The translations under genes were made by a program, and so were the position numbers. Positions 23,963 to 31,766 of a DNA stretch of 31,766 bases are shown piece by piece. The DNA is from a virus. The number at the start of each line of letters is the position of its first letter. Position 1 is the first letter of the stretch. Below the pieces are notes generated by a model. That model saw nothing but the letters and a program-made list of their open reading frames with translations, made no database searches and was not told the DNA's origin. Location of the stretch: positions 1 to 31,766 of IMG/VR virus record IMGVR_UViG_3300013103_000034; one strand, 5' to 3'.

Positions 23963-24592
23963 TTAAGATGGTAATAGGTCTTTTATATTGTAACCTTCTA
24001 TCAAACTCGTTATTATACTATCTTTTTTTGTTATATTATCTTTTGCTGATATTATTCTCAAGTTTCTTAAATTCCAACCTTTCTCTAAATACTCTTTTTC
24101 GTTTTTATATAAACTTTGTGGAATTATATGATCTATATGAAACTCTTTACCATTATCTAAAAAATATTCCCAAGTAACACCATCAGGTAAATTACTTTTC
24201 AGATGATTTAATAGATCCTCTTTAGAGTATCCTAATAAATCTAGTGTTTTTCTGCCATCTTTATTTATGTATTGTCTCATAGCTGATTTAATTCTATTTT
24301 TCATTTTTCTAAATGGATCGTCTTTAACTTTTTTTTGCCACTTTCTAACGGATTTTATTCGAACCTTTTTGTTTTGTTCGTAATATATTCTGCCATATTC
24401 TTTTTTGTCTTCACAAACTATGTTAGTTCTTTTATTTTTTTTAGTGATATGACTATTTTTTATATCATAGTAATTCTTTTGTTTTATAATAAAACAAGCT
24501 TTACAGTAATTTCTGTATCCATCTTTACTATCTTTCTGCTTATAAAATTCGTTAGTCTCTTTTGTTTTTTTACAGTTATTACATATTTTCAT
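23963..24592 (-). CDS. HNH homing endonuclease 2 (zinc-finger type)
   Basis: A 209-residue protein. C4-C7 and C30-C33 form an N-terminal zinc finger. The HNH core is FHIDHIIP (151-158), then W-N-L-R-N (173-177) and the A-K-D-N segment, and the C-terminus is IKDLLP. It resembles HNH gene 3 in the same window. A DNA-cutting mobile gene. It lies between the DnaE N-terminal gene and the predicted internal head protein, and its stop directly abuts the latter's late promoter. A late-type motif (GTAAAGGTAT) ends 4 nt before its ATG. Confidence 0.87.
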   Translation of the reverse strand: MKICNNCKKTKETNEFYKQKDSKDGYRNYCKACFIIKQKNYYDIKNSHITKKNKRTNIVCEDKKEYGRIYYEQNKKVRIKSVRKWQKKVKDDPFRKMKNRIKSAMRQYINKDGRKTLDLLGYSKEDLLNHLKSNLPDGVTWEYFLDNGKEFHIDHIIPQSLYKNEKEYLEKGWNLRNLRIISAKDNITKKDSIITSLIEGYNIKDLLPS

Positions 24593-24629: not shown

Positions 24630-24658
24630 TTGACAATAAAAGAATAATAAGTTACAAT
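24630..24658 (+). promoter_or_regulatory. early promoter cassette (TTGACA-17-TACAAT)
   Basis: -35 at 24630-24635, -10 TACAAT at 24653-24658, and the ATG of the polymerase N-terminal gene 5 nt later at 24664, predicting a leaderless mRNA. Confidence 0.85.
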
Positions 24659-24663
24659 TAGAC

Positions 24664-25953
24664 ATGAGTTACTCACATTTACATCTTCATACACACATGG
24701 GATCAACCTTAGACGGAATAGGTTCATCTGAACAATATGCTAAATTAGCAAAAGAGCTTGGGCACCCAGCGATAGCTATAACAGATCACGGAAAAATGAA
24801 CGGGCATTACGAACATTATTTAGCGTGTAAGAAATACGGAATAAAACCAATCTTCGGAGTTGAAGCTTATGTTGAGTTTGAACTTGAAAGAACAGAAATA
24901 GTTAAAGAAAAAGAGAAGCGTGTTCGTAATAAGAATATGCATCTCGTTCTTCTTGCAAAAAACGAAATAGGTTATCATAACTTACTTAAACTAAACTACA
25001 TATCAAACTCAGATGAACAACATTATTATTACAAAAACCATATTCTACTTAAAGAACTTTTTAAACACAAGGAAGGAATTATTGTAGGAACTGCGTGTAT
25101 GGGTTCTCCATTTTCAAGATTACATATGGATGGAGAAGTTGAAAAATCAGAAAAACTTTTTAAACTATTCAAAGAACAATTCGGTGATGATTTTTACGCA
25201 GAGATACAACTAAATGAGATAACACATAGTATTGATAACTTCAAAGAAGGACAGAAATCTGTAAATGAATGGATTATTCACTTAGCTAAAAAATATGAAG
25301 TTCCAATAGTTTTAACTGGTGACGTTCATTATGCAACAAAAGGACTTGATAGAATACAAACACTTGCAATTGCAATTAGTCGTGGTGTAACTCTTAAAGA
25401 AATGGATTGGGATTTAGAAGGAAAGAGTTTATTCTATATGGATAAAAAAGACTTTCATCAATTCAATAAAGATTGGGGATATAATTATACAGATGAAGAG
25501 CTAGAAGAGTGGATGGATAATACTCAGTTAATTGTTGATAAATGTAGTTTTGAGTTCAAAGAGAGAAATAGATTGCTCCTTCCAACTTTTTCAGAAGATG
25601 ATGATAGTTTATTAATAACTGAAAGTAAGAAAGGTTTGATTGACAAGATGGGAGTTTCAGAGTGGTCTGAAGTTCCAGTGGAGTATCGTAAGAGATTAGG
25701 AAAAGAAGTTGAAATTATTCTCAGGAAAGGATTTGCTTCTTATATAATGATACTTTGGGATGTATTTAATTTTGCGAGAGATGAAGAAATAATGAGAGGC
25801 CCCGCGAGAGGCTCTGGTGGAGGTAGTCTTTTGTTGTTCGCTCTTGATATTTCAACATTAGATCCAATTAAATATGGACTTATTTTTGAAAGGTTTTTAA
25901 GTGATGAAAGAAGTGTGGATGTAGTTTATGATTATTTTGGAGAGGCAATATGA
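24664..25953 (+). CDS. dnaE: DNA polymerase III alpha, fragment 1: PHP and N-terminal palm
   Basis: A 429-residue protein. The PHP domain starts with HLHLHTH (5-11), TDHG (40-43) and GVEAY (65-69), the metal-binding motifs of this domain in bacterial DnaE. At 378-389 the nucleotide-binding loop of the palm reads RGPARGSGGGSL, followed by LDPIKYGLIFERFL (399-412). The chain ends 17 residues later with no sign of the catalytic DxDxD motif, which in one-piece DnaE follows about six residues after FERFL-x-x-E-R. That motif is in the gene at 28597. The gene is thus a natural-looking fragment whose stop (ATGA) overlaps the next gene's start. No intein motifs at the end. It must associate with the other fragments to be active. 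Confidence 0.88.
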   Translation: MSYSHLHLHTHMGSTLDGIGSSEQYAKLAKELGHPAIAITDHGKMNGHYEHYLACKKYGIKPIFGVEAYVEFELERTEIVKEKEKRVRNKNMHLVLLAKNEIGYHNLLKLNYISNSDEQHYYYKNHILLKELFKHKEGIIVGTACMGSPFSRLHMDGEVEKSEKLFKLFKEQFGDDFYAEIQLNEITHSIDNFKEGQKSVNEWIIHLAKKYEVPIVLTGDVHYATKGLDRIQTLAIAISRGVTLKEMDWDLEGKSLFYMDKKDFHQFNKDWGYNYTDEELEEWMDNTQLIVDKCSFEFKERNRLLLPTFSEDDDSLLITESKKGLIDKMGVSEWSEVPVEYRKRLGKEVEIILRKGFASYIMILWDVFNFARDEEIMRGPARGSGGGSLLLFALDISTLDPIKYGLIFERFLSDERSVDVVYDYFGEAI

Positions 25954-26225
25954 ATTTAATACACAAACAAGAGTTAGAGATTTATGATATAAATATTTTA
26001 CATTTACCTTATAATTCTAAAATATTAAAAGTAGCTGAGCAAGATGAAAAACTTATGGTTTGGTATATTTATGATTATAGTTATATTGAAAAAAAAGAAA
26101 AGCGTATTTTTTATATTTATGGAACTGGAAATCCCATTGATACTTATGATGTAAGAACAAGAGAACATATTGATACTATTCTTATGTCTAACGGATTAGT
26201 TTGGCATATTTTTCTAGCAGTTTAA
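25950..26225 (+). CDS. small conserved-looking phage protein (91 aa)
   Basis: The ATG overlaps the stop of the polymerase fragment (ATGA). The body (HLPYNSKILKVAEQDEKLMVWYIYDY, then IFYIYGTGNPI) matches, from memory, a family of small phage proteins (DUF7352-like) with strands of the form L-P-x-x-x-x-I-L-x-V and G-T-G-x-P-I. Function unknown in that family. It is a free gene inserted between polymerase fragments. Confidence 0.7.
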   Translation: MNLIHKQELEIYDINILHLPYNSKILKVAEQDEKLMVWYIYDYSYIEKKEKRIFYIYGTGNPIDTYDVRTREHIDTILMSNGLVWHIFLAV

Positions 26226-26235
26226 GTAAAGATAA
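26226..26235 (+). promoter_or_regulatory. late-type promoter motif GTAAAGATAA
   Basis: Perfect copy, 16 nt before the ATG at 26252 and directly after the previous stop. It is the only late motif in the polymerase region, and suggests late expression of the zinc-ribbon gene. Confidence 0.5.
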
Positions 26236-26251
26236 TATCAGTGAGGACGAG

Positions 26252-26530
26252 ATGACTAAAGAACTAAAAGTTAGATGCCGAGGTTGTGGTAAACCTTTTG
26301 ATGCAAGATTTGATATAAACGATCCTATGGATTATGCTTTTTGTCCAGTATGTAAGGAAGTTGTTGAAATCAACACTGGTTTGCACGGACAACTTAAGCC
26401 AAAACATGTTTTAGACAAAAGAAAGAAAGACAAAAAAATAAAAAAAGATAAAGAACTCAAAGATAAAAGAGAAAAAGATCTAATTAAATACTTAGAGAAG
26501 CTCGCTAAAGAAAAAGACAAAGATAAATAA
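26252..26530 (+). CDS. small zinc-ribbon protein with a charged helical tail (92 aa)
   Basis: I prefer the ATG at 26252, which has a GAGGA site, over the open start at 26201. C9-x2-C12 and C31-x2-C34 make a zinc ribbon, followed by a Lys/Asp-rich tail of about 40 residues (KDKKIKKDKELKDK...), probably an extended helix. No named family. The late motif in front suggests late expression. A nucleic-acid or RNA-polymerase-binding role is possible for a zinc ribbon, but not shown. Confidence 0.6.
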   Translation: MTKELKVRCRGCGKPFDARFDINDPMDYAFCPVCKEVVEINTGLHGQLKPKHVLDKRKKDKKIKKDKELKDKREKDLIKYLEKLAKEKDKDK

Positions 26531-26532
26531 TC

Positions 26533-26561
26533 TTGACAGAAAAAGAATAATAGTTTATACT
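26533..26561 (+). promoter_or_regulatory. early promoter cassette (TTGACA-17-TATACT)
   Basis: Variant spacer starting GAAAAAGAATAAT. -10 TATACT at 26556-26561, and the helicase ATG is 5 nt later at 26567. Confidence 0.8.
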
Positions 26562-26566
26562 TAGGT

Positions 26567-27886
26567 ATGACAGAAGAAGAAAAAACTGAACTAAGAAAAG
26601 TTGCTGAAAAATATCTCAAAGACTTTAATACCTTAGATTATGAACTCAACGATGAACTTAGAAAAGCTATTCTTATGGCAGAATTATCTGAGAAGAATTT
26701 AATTATCTCTGGAAGTGCCGGAACTGGCAAATCCACTTTTATAGAATTACTTCAATTAAACAGCAACAAGAATTATGTTATACTTGCCCCTACCGGAGTA
26801 GCCGCTGTGAATGTGGGTGGTGTTACTGTCCATTCATTTTTCAAATTTCCTCATGGTATCATAAATAAATACGCAGTCAATAAAAGTATCAAAGACCTCG
26901 TAATGAAACTCGACGCAATTATCATAGATGAAATTTCTATGGTTCGTGCAGATATGATGGACGCAATAGATTACCAGCTAAGAGTATTAACAGGAAATGC
27001 CGAGAAACCGTTTGGTGGAATTAAGATTATCGCAATTGGCGACTTATTCCAATTACCACCAATCGTTCAAAAGGGAAGTCCTGATGAGAAATACATTAGT
27101 GATAGTTTTTATTCTTCCTGGTTTTTCTCTGCACCAGATATCGGTAAATTCACTATTGTCGAATTGAAGAAAATCTATCGACAGAACGATGAAGAGTTTA
27201 GAGGTGTCCTTAATAAGATTAGGATTGGAAAACAATCTTGGAATGATTTAAAGTATATTAATCAACGAGTAGTAAAAGAAGAAGACTTCGGTAAAGATTA
27301 TGTTTATCTATCTACTACTAATAAAGTTGCTGATGAAATCAATCAAAATAAATTGAATGAACTTCCAGGAATTACTGAATATAAATACAGTAAAATATAT
27401 GGAACGTTTCCTCCATCAATGTATCCAACTCTTGATGTATTACAACTGAAGGTTGGTGCTCAAATAATGATGTTGAGAAACACACCTTGGTATTATAATG
27501 GTCAAGTTGGTTCTATAATTGCATTATCAAAAGACAACATCGCCGTTGAACTTGAAGATGGAAGTCAGTATTTTATTAATCCTGAAACTTGGTTTAATTA
27601 TGAATACGAATTGAAAGATGGAAAAATTCGAATGATTGAAAAGGGGTCTTTCGCTCAATATGCAATTAAACTAGCTTGGGCTATTACTATCCATAAAAGT
27701 CAAAGTAAAACATATAATAAAGTCTATATTGATTTAGGTAATGGTGCTTTTAGCGCTGGACAAACTTATGTTGCTCTTTCTCGATGTAAAACCCTTGGTG
27801 GTATTGGGTTGAAATATAAAGTGGATAAAAGGGATATCATTGTTGATAGAACTTTGAAAGAGTATTTTATGCCAAAATTAGCTTGA
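26567..27886 (+). CDS. Pif1/Dda-like superfamily 1 helicase
   Basis: A 439-residue protein. Walker A GSAGTGKS (49-56), motif Ia APTGVAAVNVGG (74-85), Walker B DEIS (121-124) and motif III GDLFQLPP (158-165). The C-terminal signature contains H-K-S-Q-S-K-T-Y and T-Y-V-A-L-S-R-C, typical of Pif1-family helicases. It would be a 5'-to-3' helicase at forks or D-loops, comparable in size and context to T4 Dda. It has its own leaderless early promoter. Its stop is inside the next promoter's TTGACA. It lies between the two polymerase fragments that carry parts of the palm. Confidence 0.88.
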   Translation: MTEEEKTELRKVAEKYLKDFNTLDYELNDELRKAILMAELSEKNLIISGSAGTGKSTFIELLQLNSNKNYVILAPTGVAAVNVGGVTVHSFFKFPHGIINKYAVNKSIKDLVMKLDAIIIDEISMVRADMMDAIDYQLRVLTGNAEKPFGGIKIIAIGDLFQLPPIVQKGSPDEKYISDSFYSSWFFSAPDIGKFTIVELKKIYRQNDEEFRGVLNKIRIGKQSWNDLKYINQRVVKEEDFGKDYVYLSTTNKVADEINQNKLNELPGITEYKYSKIYGTFPPSMYPTLDVLQLKVGAQIMMLRNTPWYYNGQVGSIIALSKDNIAVELEDGSQYFINPETWFNYEYELKDGKIRMIEKGSFAQYAIKLAWAITIHKSQSKTYNKVYIDLGNGAFSAGQTYVALSRCKTLGGIGLKYKVDKRDIIVDRTLKEYFMPKLA

Positions 27887-27911
27887 CAATAAAAGAATAA
27901 TAGAATATAAT
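27883..27911 (+). promoter_or_regulatory. early promoter cassette (TTGACA-17-TATAAT)
   Basis: -35 at 27883-27888 with the helicase stop inside, -10 TATAAT at 27906-27911, and the HNH 3 ATG 9 nt later. Confidence 0.85.
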
Positions 27912-27920
27912 TAGGTAAGA

Positions 27921-28616
27921 ATGAAAAAATGTAGTTTTTGCAAAAAAGAAAAACCTCTCGAAGATTTTGGAAAACTATCATCAAGTAAAGATGGATTAAA
28001 TTCAGCGTGCAAAATTTGTAGAAAAGAAATTAATATTAAAAGTTATGAAAAGGTTGGAAGAAAACAAAATACTGATAAACAAAAAGAAGCAATTAAAAAC
28101 TATAAAGCAAAATGGTTTCAAGATAATAAAAAGAGAATTAGAGAGAATATATTAACTGACGAGCAAAAAGTAAAAGTAAAAAAATATAAAGCTGATTGGT
28201 TTCAAGAAAATAAAAAAAGACTAAATAAGATTAATTTAATGAGAAGAAAAACTGAACCAAAAGTTAAAATAAATCATTTAATGTCTGGTGCTATCTTAAA
28301 GTGTTTAGGTAGAGATAAGAATGGAAATAAATGGACTGAAATAGTTGGATATACAGCAGAGGATTTATTAAATCATTTTGAAGTCGATGTAATACCAAAA
28401 GGGTATCATATAGACCATATCATTCCTATAAACGCTTATGATTATTCATCTATTGATGATGAATTTTTGAAGTGTTGGAACATTAGAAATTTAAGAATAA
28501 TTCCAGCTAAGGAAAATTTATCAAAGGGAGATAAACTTGACAAAAAGATGATAATTGAACATAATATAATAGACTTATTACCGAAGGAGGTAGTCTTTGA
28601 AGGACTGGACTTTTGA
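27921..28616 (+). CDS. HNH homing endonuclease 3 (zinc-finger type), inside the split polymerase
   Basis: A 231-residue protein. C4-C7 and C30-C33 form a zinc finger, followed by a Lys-rich helical linker and the HNH core YHIDHIIP (162-169), W-N-I-R-N (186-190 region) and A-K-E-N. The C-terminal region has IIDLLP. It is close in layout to HNH gene 2. Its end encodes AAGGAGG, the ribosome binding site for polymerase fragment 2, and it overlaps that gene by 20 nt. Homing of this gene is a plausible cause of the break in dnaE. Confidence 0.87.
   Translation: MKKCSFCKKEKPLEDFGKLSSSKDGLNSACKICRKEINIKSYEKVGRKQNTDKQKEAIKNYKAKWFQDNKKRIRENILTDEQKVKVKKYKADWFQENKKRLNKINLMRRKTEPKVKINHLMSGAILKCLGRDKNGNKWTEIVGYTAEDLLNHFEVDVIPKGYHIDHIIPINAYDYSSIDDEFLKCWNIRNLRIIPAKENLSKGDKLDKKMIIEHNIIDLLPKEVVFEGLDF
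28537..28565 (+). promoter_or_regulatory. candidate internal promoter TTGACA-17-CATAAT for polymerase fragment 2
   Basis: A diverged cassette-like sequence inside the HNH 3 gene; -10 CATAAT at 28560-28565, 31 nt before the TTG start at 28597. It may simply be coding sequence. Confidence 0.4.
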
Positions 28617-29672
28617 AGAATTAAAAAATACTTGTGATGAAGAGGTAAAAAAATATCCTCATCTTGAAAAAAAGTATAAAAAAGAACTTTCAATCGCCAA
28701 ACGTTTTTATAAAAATGGAAGAAATCTATATCAGGAACTAATAGACAAGAAAGATAAAATAGATACAAGATATATTATACCATACTTGTTAAAAATAACA
28801 GATACATGGATAGATAAAAATCCTGTTTATATTCAGGTTAGTTCTGGAGCCTCAGGTGGTAAGGCTTATGCCACCCGTTATAGAAATATAGCGTAAAAAA
28901 TGTTCTAAATTGTCGGGGAACTCCAGAGATGGACAATCCGCAGCGAAACCCGAAAGGGGACGTTCAACGACTATAATGGACTACCTAAACGTAAAGTCGT
29001 AGGTAAAGGGATAGTCTGATCTTGCTATATAATCTAAAAATAAAAAGCAAGCTAACATAAATGATAGATATAGATACTGATTGGCAGGGCGATGGACGAG
29101 AAAAAATCTACAATTATCTCAACAAAAAATACGGCAGCGAAAGAGTTCTCCACGTGGGAACGTTTTCTACGCTCGGACCTGCATCAGCGGCTAAGGATAT
29201 TCTCCGTGCAAATAGTATCGACTTTGGCAAATCTAATAAATTTACTAAAGTTCTTGAAAAACAGGAAACGTGGCAAGAAAACTTAGATAGAATAAAAGCA
29301 AACGATAAAGATAATTGGAAGTTTTATCTTGACAATAAAGAAGTTCTCGATGATGTTCCTCACCTTATCGGTAAAATCCGACAAAGTGGAAAACATGCTG
29401 GAGGAATTGTTGTAAGTGAGAAACCTATTTATAATTATATTCCAGTTGATAGAGTAAAAGGGGAAGTTGTAACAGCTTTTCCGGAGAGTGGAAGCAATAC
29501 TGTTCTTGATGAAATAGGTATTATTAAATATGATATATTAGGTATTTCAATTTTAGATGTTATGGCAGAAGCTATTGAAATGGTTGATGAAAAAATGTAT
29601 GAAATAGAAGAAGATGGAATTAGAAAAGTAGTTCCAGCTAGCTATATAGATAAGGAGATAGAGAAACTATAA
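28597..29672 (+). CDS. dnaE: DNA polymerase III alpha, fragment 2: catalytic palm (joined 28597-28860 and 29064-29672)
   Basis: Joined over the intron, this encodes 290 residues. The TTG start has a perfect AAGGAGG site 6 nt upstream. Exon 1 gives 88 residues that end SSGASGG; exon 2 continues IDIDTDW, so D90 and D92 match the E. coli metal-binding Asp401 and Asp403. KHAGG (198-202) and K-Y-D-I-L-G, with D245 matching Asp555, follow. All three catalytic aspartates are therefore here, while the PHP domain is in fragment 1 and the GIFQL motif in fragment 3. It stops after 290 residues, before the fingers. The first 80 residues have no match in E. coli DnaE and may be a lineage-specific insertion. 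Confidence 0.85.
28861..29063 (+). other. group I self-splicing intron, ORF-less (203 nt)
   Basis: The 5' exon ends GGTGGT, which pairs perfectly with GCCACC at 28870-28875, ending in the standard U-G wobble at the splice site (P1). P2 is CGTTATA-GAAA-TATAGCG. The core contains GTTCAACGACTAT (about 28962-28974) and ATAGTC (P7 partners), like T4 td, and a CTTGCT / AGCAAG stem near the 3' end. The intron ends at the G of TAACATAAATG (29063), as expected for the terminal guanosine. Splicing joins GGT to ATA in frame. An in-frame TAA at 28894-28896 would end the unspliced frame. Confidence 0.85.
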
Positions 29673-29890
29673 TGGGAATTAAAAATAAAGAAGTAATGCA
29701 ATTAATTAACAGCAAGACAAAAGAGATGGAAAAACATCTTAATGTAATAGAGGAAGAGCTACAAAAAGATGATGATAGATTTAAGAAAGCTGTCGTAGCT
29801 ATTTCATCAGGAAAAATTATGAAACTACATCAAGATATAGCATATTTTCTTGGCGTGTTCGATGACAATCCAAAGTATGAGGGAAATTAA
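29672..29890 (+). CDS. small helical protein, unknown function (72 aa)
   Basis: ATG overlaps the stop of polymerase fragment 2 (TAATG). The product (MGIKNKEVMQLINSKTKEMEKH...) is helical with possible coiled-coil spacing. Its own stop overlaps the start of the ligase gene. No family recognised. It lies between polymerase fragment 2 and ligase, so a replication role is possible but not shown. Confidence 0.6.
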   Translation: MGIKNKEVMQLINSKTKEMEKHLNVIEEELQKDDDRFKKAVVAISSGKIMKLHQDIAYFLGVFDDNPKYEGN

Positions 29891-31203
29891 TGCTTAAAGA
29901 ATTACAGGAAATGGTTGATGATTTAACATCAACAAATTCAAATAATGAAAAAATTGAAAGATTAGCTAAGTATGAAAATTTAAAGAAAATCATAAAGTAT
30001 GCTCATAATCCAATGATGCAATTTTATGTCACTTCCAAGACTGTAGAGAAATATGCTAAAACTAATAATAAAGTTAGTGATGAATGGACTAGTGTTGATG
30101 AAGAAGGTTTGTTTGATTTATTAGATAAATTAAGCACAAGAGAACTATCAGGGCATAATGCTCTTAATGCAGTTGAAAGCTATATTACTGGCTCAGGTAG
30201 AGAAGAATATAAAGATTTAATTTATTCTGTTATAGATAAAAACCTGAAAATAAGAATGAGTGATACTACTATCAACAAAGTATTTCCAGAATTAATTCCA
30301 GAGTTCAAAGTTCAACTAGCCGACAAAATTGATATAGATAAAATACCAGATTTCGAAAATGAAAAATGGTTTGCGTCAAGAAAGCTTGATGGTGTAAGAT
30401 GTATTACCATAGTGAAACAAGGAAGTGTTAAGTTTTATAGTAGAACCGGAAAGGAATTTACTACACTTGATTTAGTTCAAAAAGCAATTAGAAAAGAGTT
30501 AATAAGTTTATCTGGGTTGGACTTTGTTCTTGATGGTGAAATGTGTATTATTGATGAAAATGGTAATGAAGACTTCACAAGTATAATTAAAGTAATTCGT
30601 AAAAAAGATTATACTATTTTAAACCCAAGGTATAAAATTTTCGACTTCTTATCATTAAATGACTTCTTAAAGAAATCAAGTAATGAAGTTTTTTCATCTA
30701 GGTATAAAGTTTATAGCGAGATAAAATCTCCTTCTGGTATTCTTAGCCCTGTAGAACAAGTTTATATAGACAGTGCTAAAACTTTCAGTGAGTTGTCTGA
30801 GCAAGCAGATGAACTTGGATGGGAAGGACTTATCGTTAGAAAAGATGTTAAGTATGCAGGAAAACGTTCTAAGAATATGTTAAAAGTAAAACAGTTTCAC
30901 GAAGCTGAATATGAAGTTCAGGCAATAACTAGTGGAATGATTAGATTTATTTCAAAAGAAACCGGACTTGAAGAAGAAGAGATAATGCTTAGTAATGTGG
31001 TTATTGAGCATCTTGGAAATAATGTTGGGGTTGGTTCTGGATTTACCTTAGAACAACGTCAAAGTTTCTTTAAAAATCCGGATTTGATTATAGGAAAAAC
31101 CATAACAGTTAAATACTTTGAAGAAAGTCAGGATAAAGATGGTAATGTTTCTTTGAGGTTCCCTGTCGTAAAGCATATTTATGATGGAGCGAGGGAAGTT
31201 TAA
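29890..31203 (+). CDS. 30: ATP-dependent DNA ligase (T4 gp30-like)
   Basis: A 437-residue protein. The nucleophile K165 lies in KLDGVR (165-170, motif I), LDGEM is motif III (214-218), EGLIVRK motif IV (312-318) and LKVKQF motif V (331-336), followed by an OB-fold-like C-terminus ending near residue 437. It would seal nicks between Okazaki fragments and in recombination products. It is slightly shorter than T4 ligase (487). Start by TAATG overlap with the 72-aa gene, and its own stop overlaps the sigma-like gene in the same way, so the four genes from 28597 on are a coupled unit. Confidence 0.93.
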   Translation: MLKELQEMVDDLTSTNSNNEKIERLAKYENLKKIIKYAHNPMMQFYVTSKTVEKYAKTNNKVSDEWTSVDEEGLFDLLDKLSTRELSGHNALNAVESYITGSGREEYKDLIYSVIDKNLKIRMSDTTINKVFPELIPEFKVQLADKIDIDKIPDFENEKWFASRKLDGVRCITIVKQGSVKFYSRTGKEFTTLDLVQKAIRKELISLSGLDFVLDGEMCIIDENGNEDFTSIIKVIRKKDYTILNPRYKIFDFLSLNDFLKKSSNEVFSSRYKVYSEIKSPSGILSPVEQVYIDSAKTFSELSEQADELGWEGLIVRKDVKYAGKRSKNMLKVKQFHEAEYEVQAITSGMIRFISKETGLEEEEIMLSNVVIEHLGNNVGVGSGFTLEQRQSFFKNPDLIIGKTITVKYFEESQDKDGNVSLRFPVVKHIYDGAREV

Positions 31204-31589
31204 TGTTAGACATCAATAAAGATATTCTCAACGAGAAGTACAACGAAGGTGATATGGAATATTTTTTTGATAAGGCTAGTAAAATAGCGGACTTCGTACT
31301 AACAAAAACATACAAAGTATATGATACTGAAAAAAGAGCTGATATGGTTCAGGAGTGTCTTGAAAATCTTTGGAAGAAAGTTCAACAAGGCAAAGTTGAT
31401 GGCTCAAAAAACTTAATGAGTTTTGTTTGGCAAAACTCAACGTTTAGAATAAAAGAAATCCTAAGAAAAGAAAAAAATAGAAATCGCATTGCTCCTTTTA
31501 TTTCATATGATAATGATGAAATGGAATTTATGAAAGGAATTGATAGCAATAAATATGGAGAAGCAGAAATAGCTAAGATATTTATTTGA
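31203..31589 (+). CDS. 55: sigma-factor-like protein, candidate late sigma (gp55-like)
   Basis: A 128-residue protein. The middle (about 45-95) has the layout of sigma70 region 2: D-M-V-Q-E-C-L-E-N-L-W, then F-V-W-Q-N-S-T-F-R-I-K-E-I-L-R-K-E, a helix rich in aromatic and basic residues that in sigma factors contacts the core enzyme and the -10 element. There is no region 4, as in T4 gp55, which directs late transcription to TATAAATA. Here the matching target could be GTAAAGATAA. Start overlaps the ligase stop; its TGA is within the TTGACA of the next promoter. Similarity is weak and read by eye. Confidence 0.6.
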   Translation: MLDINKDILNEKYNEGDMEYFFDKASKIADFVLTKTYKVYDTEKRADMVQECLENLWKKVQQGKVDGSKNLMSFVWQNSTFRIKEILRKEKNRNRIAPFISYDNDEMEFMKGIDSNKYGEAEIAKIFI

Positions 31590-31614
31590 CAGAAAAAGAA
31601 TAATTAAGTATAAT
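31586..31614 (+). promoter_or_regulatory. early promoter cassette (TTGACA-17-TATAAT)
   Basis: GAAAAAGAATAAT variant, as at 26533. -10 TATAAT at 31609-31614, and the polymerase fragment 3 ATG is 5 nt later at 31620. Confidence 0.85.
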
Positions 31615-31619
31615 TAAAT

Positions 31620-31766
31620 ATGATAAAAGTAATTAGAGAAGTATCTAAACAAGATTTAAAGGATCACCTGTACGATTTAAATACAGATGATCCTAATATT
31701 TATGTTGAAGCTAATAATGATAATAGTATTGGTATCTTTCAGCTCAATGGAAATCTTGCACACGAA
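31620..31766 (+). CDS. dnaE: DNA polymerase III alpha, fragment 3: start of the region after the palm (partial)
   Basis: Open from the ATG at 31620 to the window end (49 residues). Residues about 35-42 (NSIGIFQL) match the G-x-x-x-V-F-Q-L-E-S region that follows the catalytic aspartates in DnaE (in E. coli, T-T-A-V-F-Q-L-E-S-R-G-M). It begins just where fragment 2 ends, so the three fragments tile the family without overlap. It has its own leaderless early promoter. The rest, presumably with fingers and C-terminal domains, lies outside the window. Confidence 0.7.
   Translation, partial: MIKVIREVSKQDLKDHLYDLNTDDPNIYVEANNDNSIGIFQLNGNLAHE

What the first reader, a model, noticed from the sequence alone, without database searches (positions are those of the whole stretch)
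24664..31766. Replicative polymerase DnaE split over three genes with other genes in between
Seen: fragment 1 (24664-25953) ends after FERFL; fragment 2 (28597-29672, spliced) begins before and contains all three catalytic aspartates; fragment 3 (31620 on) begins just before GIFQL. The pieces follow the DnaE order with no repeated motif, and each has its own start signals. Known: in E. coli DnaE these motifs are in one chain. Inference: the enzyme assembles from three polypeptides, with breaks in the palm. No intein residues flank the breaks, so protein trans-splicing is unlikely, unlike the split DnaE of cyanobacteria. Separate promoters could let the ratio of fragments be set independently.
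Basis: partly seen in the sequence, partly recalled or inferred. Interest (0 to 1): 0.92.

Follow-up and report, generated by a model that had tools for sequence, protein, structure and literature searches.

The report
Phage replicative polymerase in three genes
In this phage, and in a family of its relatives, the enzyme that copies the genome is made as three separate proteins from three separate genes and most likely works only when they assemble, a further-broken form of a kind of split enzyme that has a few known precedents.

Summary
Confirmed. The window encodes a family C replicative polymerase (DnaE) as three genes: f1 24664-25953 (PHP domain plus the nucleotide-binding part of the palm), f2 28597-29672 (all three catalytic aspartates, interrupted by a 203-nt group I intron at 28861-29063) and f3 31620 to the window end (fingers). 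A helicase, an HNH endonuclease, a ligase and other genes lie between them. The pieces map colinearly onto Taq and E. coli DnaE with nothing lost. At least nine relatives, down to about 45% identity, keep the same three genes, all under purifying selection. In one 208-kb contig f2 lies about 83 kb from f1 and f3 on the opposite strand. In two contigs f1 and f2 are naturally fused. Neither the 201-kb nor the 208-kb relative shows a second DnaE or a family A or B polymerase. The f1|f2 break falls in a low-confidence loop before a helical insert also present in one-piece phage DnaEs. No intein flanks either break here, but relatives carry split inteins inside f2 and f3. Best explanation: a non-covalent three-subunit DnaE produced by gene fission. 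Two-piece split DnaEs are already published or annotated, so this is a new variant of a known kind.

The parts
24630..24658 (+). promoter motif TTGACA-N17-TACAAT directly upstream of f1
24664..25953 (+). f1: DnaE N-terminal piece, PHP domain plus NTP-binding part of the palm to FERFLSDERS, with conserved tail VDVVYDYFGEAI
   Evidence: Pfam PF02811 and PF07733; Taq alpha 6-460 / E. coli 6-398; dN/dS about 0.12
25950..26225 (+). small ORF overlapping the f1 stop (ATGA); kept in L006 and L004
26252..26530 (+). small zinc-ribbon protein between f1 and f2
26533..26561 (+). promoter motif upstream of the helicase
26567..27886 (+). Dda/PIF1-like helicase gene between f1 and f2
27883..27911 (+). promoter motif upstream of the HNH gene and f2
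27921..28616 (+). HNH/endonuclease VII-like homing-type endonuclease directly upstream of f2
   Evidence: absent at this place in L003 and L005
28584..28590 (+). Shine-Dalgarno AAGGAGG of f2
   Evidence: sequence; conserved in L005 and L006
28597..28860 (+). f2 first exon (TTG start): helical insert module homologous to an insertion in one-piece phage DnaEs
28861..29063 (+). group I intron, 203 nt, no ORF; P1 GGUGGU/GCCACC
   Evidence: Rfam RF00028 60.5 bits; absent from L003, L005, L013, L014, present in L006
29064..29672 (+). f2 second exon: catalytic palm with all three aspartates, and thumb
   Evidence: PF07733; Taq 463-637 / E. coli 401-574; dN/dS about 0.13
29672..29890 (+). 72-aa ORF of unknown function, conserved between f2 and f3
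29890..31203 (+). ATP-dependent DNA ligase between f2 and f3 (in L005 too, absent there in L003 and L006)
31203..31589 (+). 128-aa protein resembling sigma-70 region 2; always just upstream of f3 where checked
   Evidence: TIGR02937 17.9 bits, below cut-off
31586..31614 (+). promoter motif upstream of f3, -10 ends 5 nt before the ATG
31620..31766 (+). f3: start of the DnaE C-terminal (fingers) piece, cut by the contig end
   Evidence: L003 f3 maps to Taq 648-1008

Best explanation
The three genes encode the subunits of one family C DNA polymerase. f1 supplies the PHP domain and the nucleotide-binding half of the palm, f2 the catalytic aspartates and thumb, f3 the fingers and C-terminal domains. 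Shown: the pieces are complete, colinear, selected and conserved as separate genes, and f1+f2 are fused in some relatives. Inferred: they are translated separately, f2 after cis-splicing of its group I intron, and assemble non-covalently into the phage replicase. Also inferred: the separation arose by gene fission at flexible loops, the f1|f2 break at the edge of an inserted helical module. Other genes and mobile endonucleases later filled the gaps.
For: Colinear mapping without loss. Catalytic motifs and PHP ligand motifs conserved. dN/dS about 0.12 for f1, 0.13 for the f2 core, 0.12 for f3. Same three genes in L003, L005, L006, L013, L014, L017, L018, L032 and the 208-kb contig. f1 and f2 are adjacent with an ATGA overlap in L014, fused in L035/L036, and f2 lies about 83 kb away on the other strand in the 208-kb contig. 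No second DnaE and no family A/B polymerase in the 201-kb and 208-kb contigs. The fused homologue is predicted as one DnaE fold (pLDDT 86, pTM 0.81; 2hpi E=1.7e-39), with the f1|f2 joint in a loop of pLDDT under 50. Precedents of split phage enzymes that reassemble: Aeromonas phage 25 43A/43B and Aeh1 NrdA (PMC2988022).
Against: No experiment. f3 is only 49 aa in this window. The two long contigs are not known to be complete, so a second polymerase could be missed. No sliding clamp was recognised (the second search had no working control). The complex of three chains was not modelled.
Confidence: 0.82

Rival explanations
1. The pieces are separate and conserved but do not form the replicase: for example a repair enzyme, or the host polymerase copies the phage genome.
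For: In jumbo group 2.2 phages a minimal split Pol III alpha accompanies a family B replicase (PMC7824862). No clamp gene was recognised.
Against: No family A or B polymerase was found in six relatives, including contigs of 201 and 208 kb. The pieces are full-length DnaE with PHP and sit with SSB, UvsX, helicase, SbcCD and ligase genes.
Confidence: 0.1
2. The three reading frames are joined at the RNA level, by very large or trans-splicing introns, into one DnaE mRNA.
For: f2 has a real group I intron. Bacillus phage G has DnaE ORFs that look intron-separated.
Against: Both ends of both breaks carry conserved residues beyond the DnaE core, with stop and start codons. ATGA overlap in L014, in-frame fusion in L035, f2 on the other strand 83 kb away in the 208-kb contig. 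No intron match in the gaps, though Rfam also missed an evident ORF-bearing intron in phage G.
Confidence: 0.04
3. The pieces are ligated by protein trans-splicing at the two breaks, as in cyanobacterial DnaE.
For: Relatives have split inteins inside f2 (L005) and f3 (L006, L018).
Against: No intein N- or C-terminal motif matched f1, L003 or L014 f2, or L003 or L013 f3. The termini lack the conserved Cys/Ser and His-Asn.
Confidence: 0.02
4. Decayed gene fragments, frameshifts or an assembly artefact.
For: Metagenomic contig; f3 truncated by the contig end.
Against: The same arrangement in contigs from several different metagenome datasets and in a genome-assembly contig (L098). Strong purifying selection.
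Confidence: 0.02

Closest known systems
Minimal split DNA polymerase III alpha of jumbo phage group 2.2 (Iyer et al. 2021, PMC7824862)
   Same: Phage family C polymerase encoded as separate, distantly located genes; break described between the NTP-binding and the Mg-binding parts, like f1|f2.
   Different: Two pieces, minimal, no PHP or other Pol III domains, and accompanied by a family B polymerase; here three pieces, full-length with PHP, and no family A/B polymerase found.
Two-gene DnaE of Cellulophaga phage phiST and Rossellomorea phage phiT1
   Same: phiST breaks at the f1|f2 site, phiT1 at the f2|f3 site.
   Different: Only one of the two breaks in each; adjacent or nearly adjacent genes; sequences only distantly related.
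Bacillus phage G gp329/gp331/gp339
   Same: DnaE in three annotated ORFs with an endonuclease and other genes between.
   Different: The ORFs look like intron exons without their own DnaE start extensions; gp329 also carries an intein; whether the second gap is an intron is unresolved.
T4-like split gene 43 (43A/43B) and split nrdA of Aeh1 (PMC2988022)
   Same: Phage enzyme fissioned next to homing endonucleases; non-covalent reassembly and activity reported.
   Different: Family B polymerase or ribonucleotide reductase, two pieces.
Cyanobacterial split DnaE and fractured genes with split inteins
   Same: DnaE in pieces; relatives L005, L006 and L018 have split inteins with a gap or free HNH ORF between halves.
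   Different: The two breaks studied here have no intein.

Membership tests
Family C DNA polymerase III alpha (DnaE) | PHP domain with metal-ligand motifs | tested here: met
   PF02811 E=1.7e-35; HxH, TDHG, GxExY, GTAC and GDVHY motifs conserved
Family C DNA polymerase III alpha (DnaE) | Three catalytic aspartates in the palm | tested here: met
   IDID and KYDIL in f2, aligned to E. coli 401-574
Family C DNA polymerase III alpha (DnaE) | Fingers and C-terminal domains | tested here: met
   f3 of relatives maps to Taq 648-1008; only 49 aa are present in the window itself
Family C DNA polymerase III alpha (DnaE) | DNA polymerase activity | not testable with these tools
   needs purified proteins
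Group I intron | Conserved catalytic core and P1 with U.G at the 5' splice site | tested here: met
   RF00028 60.5 bits over cut-off 50; P1 read from the sequence
Group I intron | Precise excision | tested here: inconclusive
   junction agrees with intron-less relatives; splicing itself not assayed
Intein-mediated split DnaE (cyanobacterial type) | N- and C-intein halves at the break | tested here: not met
   no intein model matched f1, f2 or f3
Minimal split Pol III alpha of jumbo group 2.2 | Lacks PHP and other Pol III domains | tested here: not met
   PHP present
Minimal split Pol III alpha of jumbo group 2.2 | Accompanied by a family B polymerase | tested here: not met
   no PF00136 match in six relatives; the window genome itself is incomplete

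The most novel reading that the evidence does not exclude
A replicative polymerase obliged to assemble from three independently expressed subunits, with one interface running through the catalytic centre, in a phage lineage where DnaE is repeatedly broken by fission, group I intron, cis inteins and split inteins. Some members would need four or more translated pieces plus protein trans-splicing, and in some cases a self-splicing RNA, to make one enzyme.
Probability: 0.6. Interest if true: 0.7.

Novelty: new variant of a known kind. Interest (0 to 1): 0.62.

Why it matters
It would show that a replicative polymerase can be cut between its nucleotide-binding site and its catalytic aspartates, and again before the fingers, and remain selected for over long divergence with genes up to tens of kilobases apart. 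The series one-piece with insert, fused, adjacent, interrupted and unlinked gives a natural record of gene fission. The tree and the helical insert suggest where a polymerase tolerates breakage. The pieces also give ready-made break points for a split family C polymerase.

Tried and rejected
Rfam 'gathering' search of the whole window missed the intron; a short-stretch search found it. First hhalign of the f2 insert against the one-piece insertion was weak (P 0.006); adding L025, L026, L067 and L098 made it clear (E 1.3e-6, score 38.8 against at most 15.7 in 100 column shuffles). The insert also resembles the helices before the GRGS motif (E 4e-4), a possible internal duplication not pursued. 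Grouping of the split clade with the insertion-bearing one-piece clade is neither supported nor rejected (AU p=0.23). The T4-type clamp search had no working control. The PF04466 terminase search gave nothing. Literature searches for 'split DNA polymerase' with DnaE found nothing; the key precedent came from the jumbo-phage review.

Full report
The observation. The window is a 31,766-base linear viral contig, a fragment. It holds three DnaE pieces in order on the + strand: f1 24664-25953, f2 28597-29672 and f3 from 31620 to the end. Profiles assign f1 to PHP plus the first part of the Pol III alpha NTPase domain, f2 to the rest of that domain, and the f3 stub to the fingers. Mapping to solved structures gives Taq 6-460, 463-637 and 648-1008 (E. 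coli 6-398, 401-574 and 592-902) for f1, f2 and the f3 of a relative, so nothing is lost or repeated.

The intron. f2 is interrupted by a group I intron, 28861-29063 (Rfam 60.5 bits). L003 and L005 lack it and read DSGA-IDVDSD and ASGG-IDIDTD straight through; L006 has a nearly identical intron of 202 nt at the same place. The intron sits directly before the catalytic aspartates.

Relatives. Scans of IMG/VR with f1, f2 and f3 brought in close (about 76-80% identical) and distant (about 42-55%) relatives. HMM mapping of all loci shows separate f1, f2 and f3 genes in L003, L005, L006, L013, L014, L017, L018 and L032. L004 and L007 end too early to tell. In L014 f1 and f2 overlap by ATGA. In L022/L024/L035/L036 (two contigs) f1 and f2 are one ORF of about 715 aa while f3 is separate. 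In the 207,680-base contig behind L023, f1 (199,756-201,027, minus) and f3 (197,493-199,079, minus) are together but f2 is at 113,445-114,290 on the plus strand, about 83 kb away. A contig in a Candidatus Nealsonbacteria MAG has the same f1|f2 break. The genes between the pieces vary: ligase and HNH genes come and go and the helicase is confined to the close relatives, while the 128-aa sigma-like protein stays next to f3 where checked.

Selection and sole polymerase. dN/dS is about 0.12 for f1, 0.13 for the f2 core, 0.12 for f3 and mostly 0.3-0.5 for the f2 N-terminal module. dS is near saturation, so these are rough. The 201-kb and 208-kb contigs each have one PHP match and one fingers match; in the 201-kb contig all Pol III palm matches are the known pieces; neither has a family A or B polymerase. 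The contigs may be incomplete.

Anatomy of the breaks. The first about 88 residues of f2 are absent from cellular DnaE. They are homologous to an insertion of about 105 residues between FERFLNPGR and PDVDTD in one-piece DnaEs of other viral contigs (hhalign E=1.3e-6). Predicted secondary structures agree: two long helices (18 and 19 residues in the fused L035 model, 17 and 19 in the one-piece L056 model) followed by short ones. In the L035 model the f1|f2 joint is a loop with pLDDT under 50 and the whole fold matches Pol III alpha. f1, f2 and f3 each carry conserved terminal extensions beyond the DnaE core; these may help docking (inference).

Evolution. On a 41-row tree all f1|f2-split taxa, including two-gene cases L025, L026 and L067, form one clade (96/80), and all f2|f3-split taxa of the viral contigs form a clade within it (100/100). 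By parsimony f1|f2 fission is old, f2|f3 fission later, and L035 a probable re-fusion (inference). The same gene set is a target of mobile elements: group I intron here and in L006; cis inteins in L012 f3, L014 f1 and L032 f3; split inteins with a free HNH ORF in L005 f2 and L006 f3, and a split intein at the L006 site in L018 f3. These split inteins are not at the two breaks, where no intein model matches.

Expression. A strong motif TTGACA-(N)AAAAAGAATAAT-N5-TATAAT precedes f1, the helicase, the HNH gene and f3, and occurs eight times in the window with none expected. The -10 box ends about 5 nt before the ATG of f3 and of the helicase, which suggests leaderless messages. f2 has no such motif; it has AAGGAGG and a TTG start and is probably co-transcribed from 27883. 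In L003 a TATAAT element does precede f2.

Comparison with the known. Iyer et al. (PMC7824862) describe a minimal two-piece Pol III alpha in jumbo phages, broken between the NTP-binding and Mg-binding parts, without PHP and beside a family B polymerase. phiST has f1 apart from f2+f3, phiT1 has f1+f2 apart from f3, and phage G has DnaE in three ORFs. Phage 25 43A/43B co-purify and are active (PMC2988022). So non-covalent reassembly of a split phage polymerase is an established kind. The three-gene full-length DnaE with both breaks conserved, and unlinked in one relative, is a variant I did not find described; the paper library is open-access only.

Verdict. The three-subunit reading is well supported by comparative evidence and untested by experiment.

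Noticed in passing
window 9526, 16980, 18560, 19727, 24630, 26533, 27883, 31586: Eight near-identical 29-nt promoter-like motifs TTGACA-(N)AAAAAGAATAAT-N5-TATAAT, all on the + strand and conserved in close relatives; the spacer is conserved too, and several end about 5 nt before an ATG, suggesting leaderless messages.
   Followed up: partly
window 31203-31589: 128-aa protein resembling only sigma-70 region 2, strongly conserved (dN about 0.13 against dS above 2) and next to f3 where checked; possibly a minimal phage sigma factor.
   Followed up: partly
window 23963-24592 (-) and 27921-28616 (+): Two related HNH/endonuclease VII-like proteins (33% identical) flank the f1-to-f2 region; one directly abuts f2.
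   Followed up: partly
L005 12880-15074; L006 16978-19788; L018 9486-12320: Split inteins inside f2 or f3, with a free-standing HNH ORF between the halves in L005 and L006: DnaE in four or more pieces.
   Followed up: partly
L096 (Bacillus phage G) 9246-20009: DnaE in gp329 (with an intein), gp331 and gp339, with a GIY-YIG gene and about 5 kb of other genes between; whether the second gap is an intron or a fission is unresolved.
   Followed up: partly
L098 (contig of a Candidatus Nealsonbacteria MAG): A relative with the same f1|f2 break sits in a CPR genome bin, a weak hint of host or a binning error.
   Followed up: no
window 28597-28860 and L042-L080 insertions: The helical insert weakly resembles the DnaE helices just before the GRGS motif (E 4e-4), possibly an internal duplication.
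   Followed up: partly
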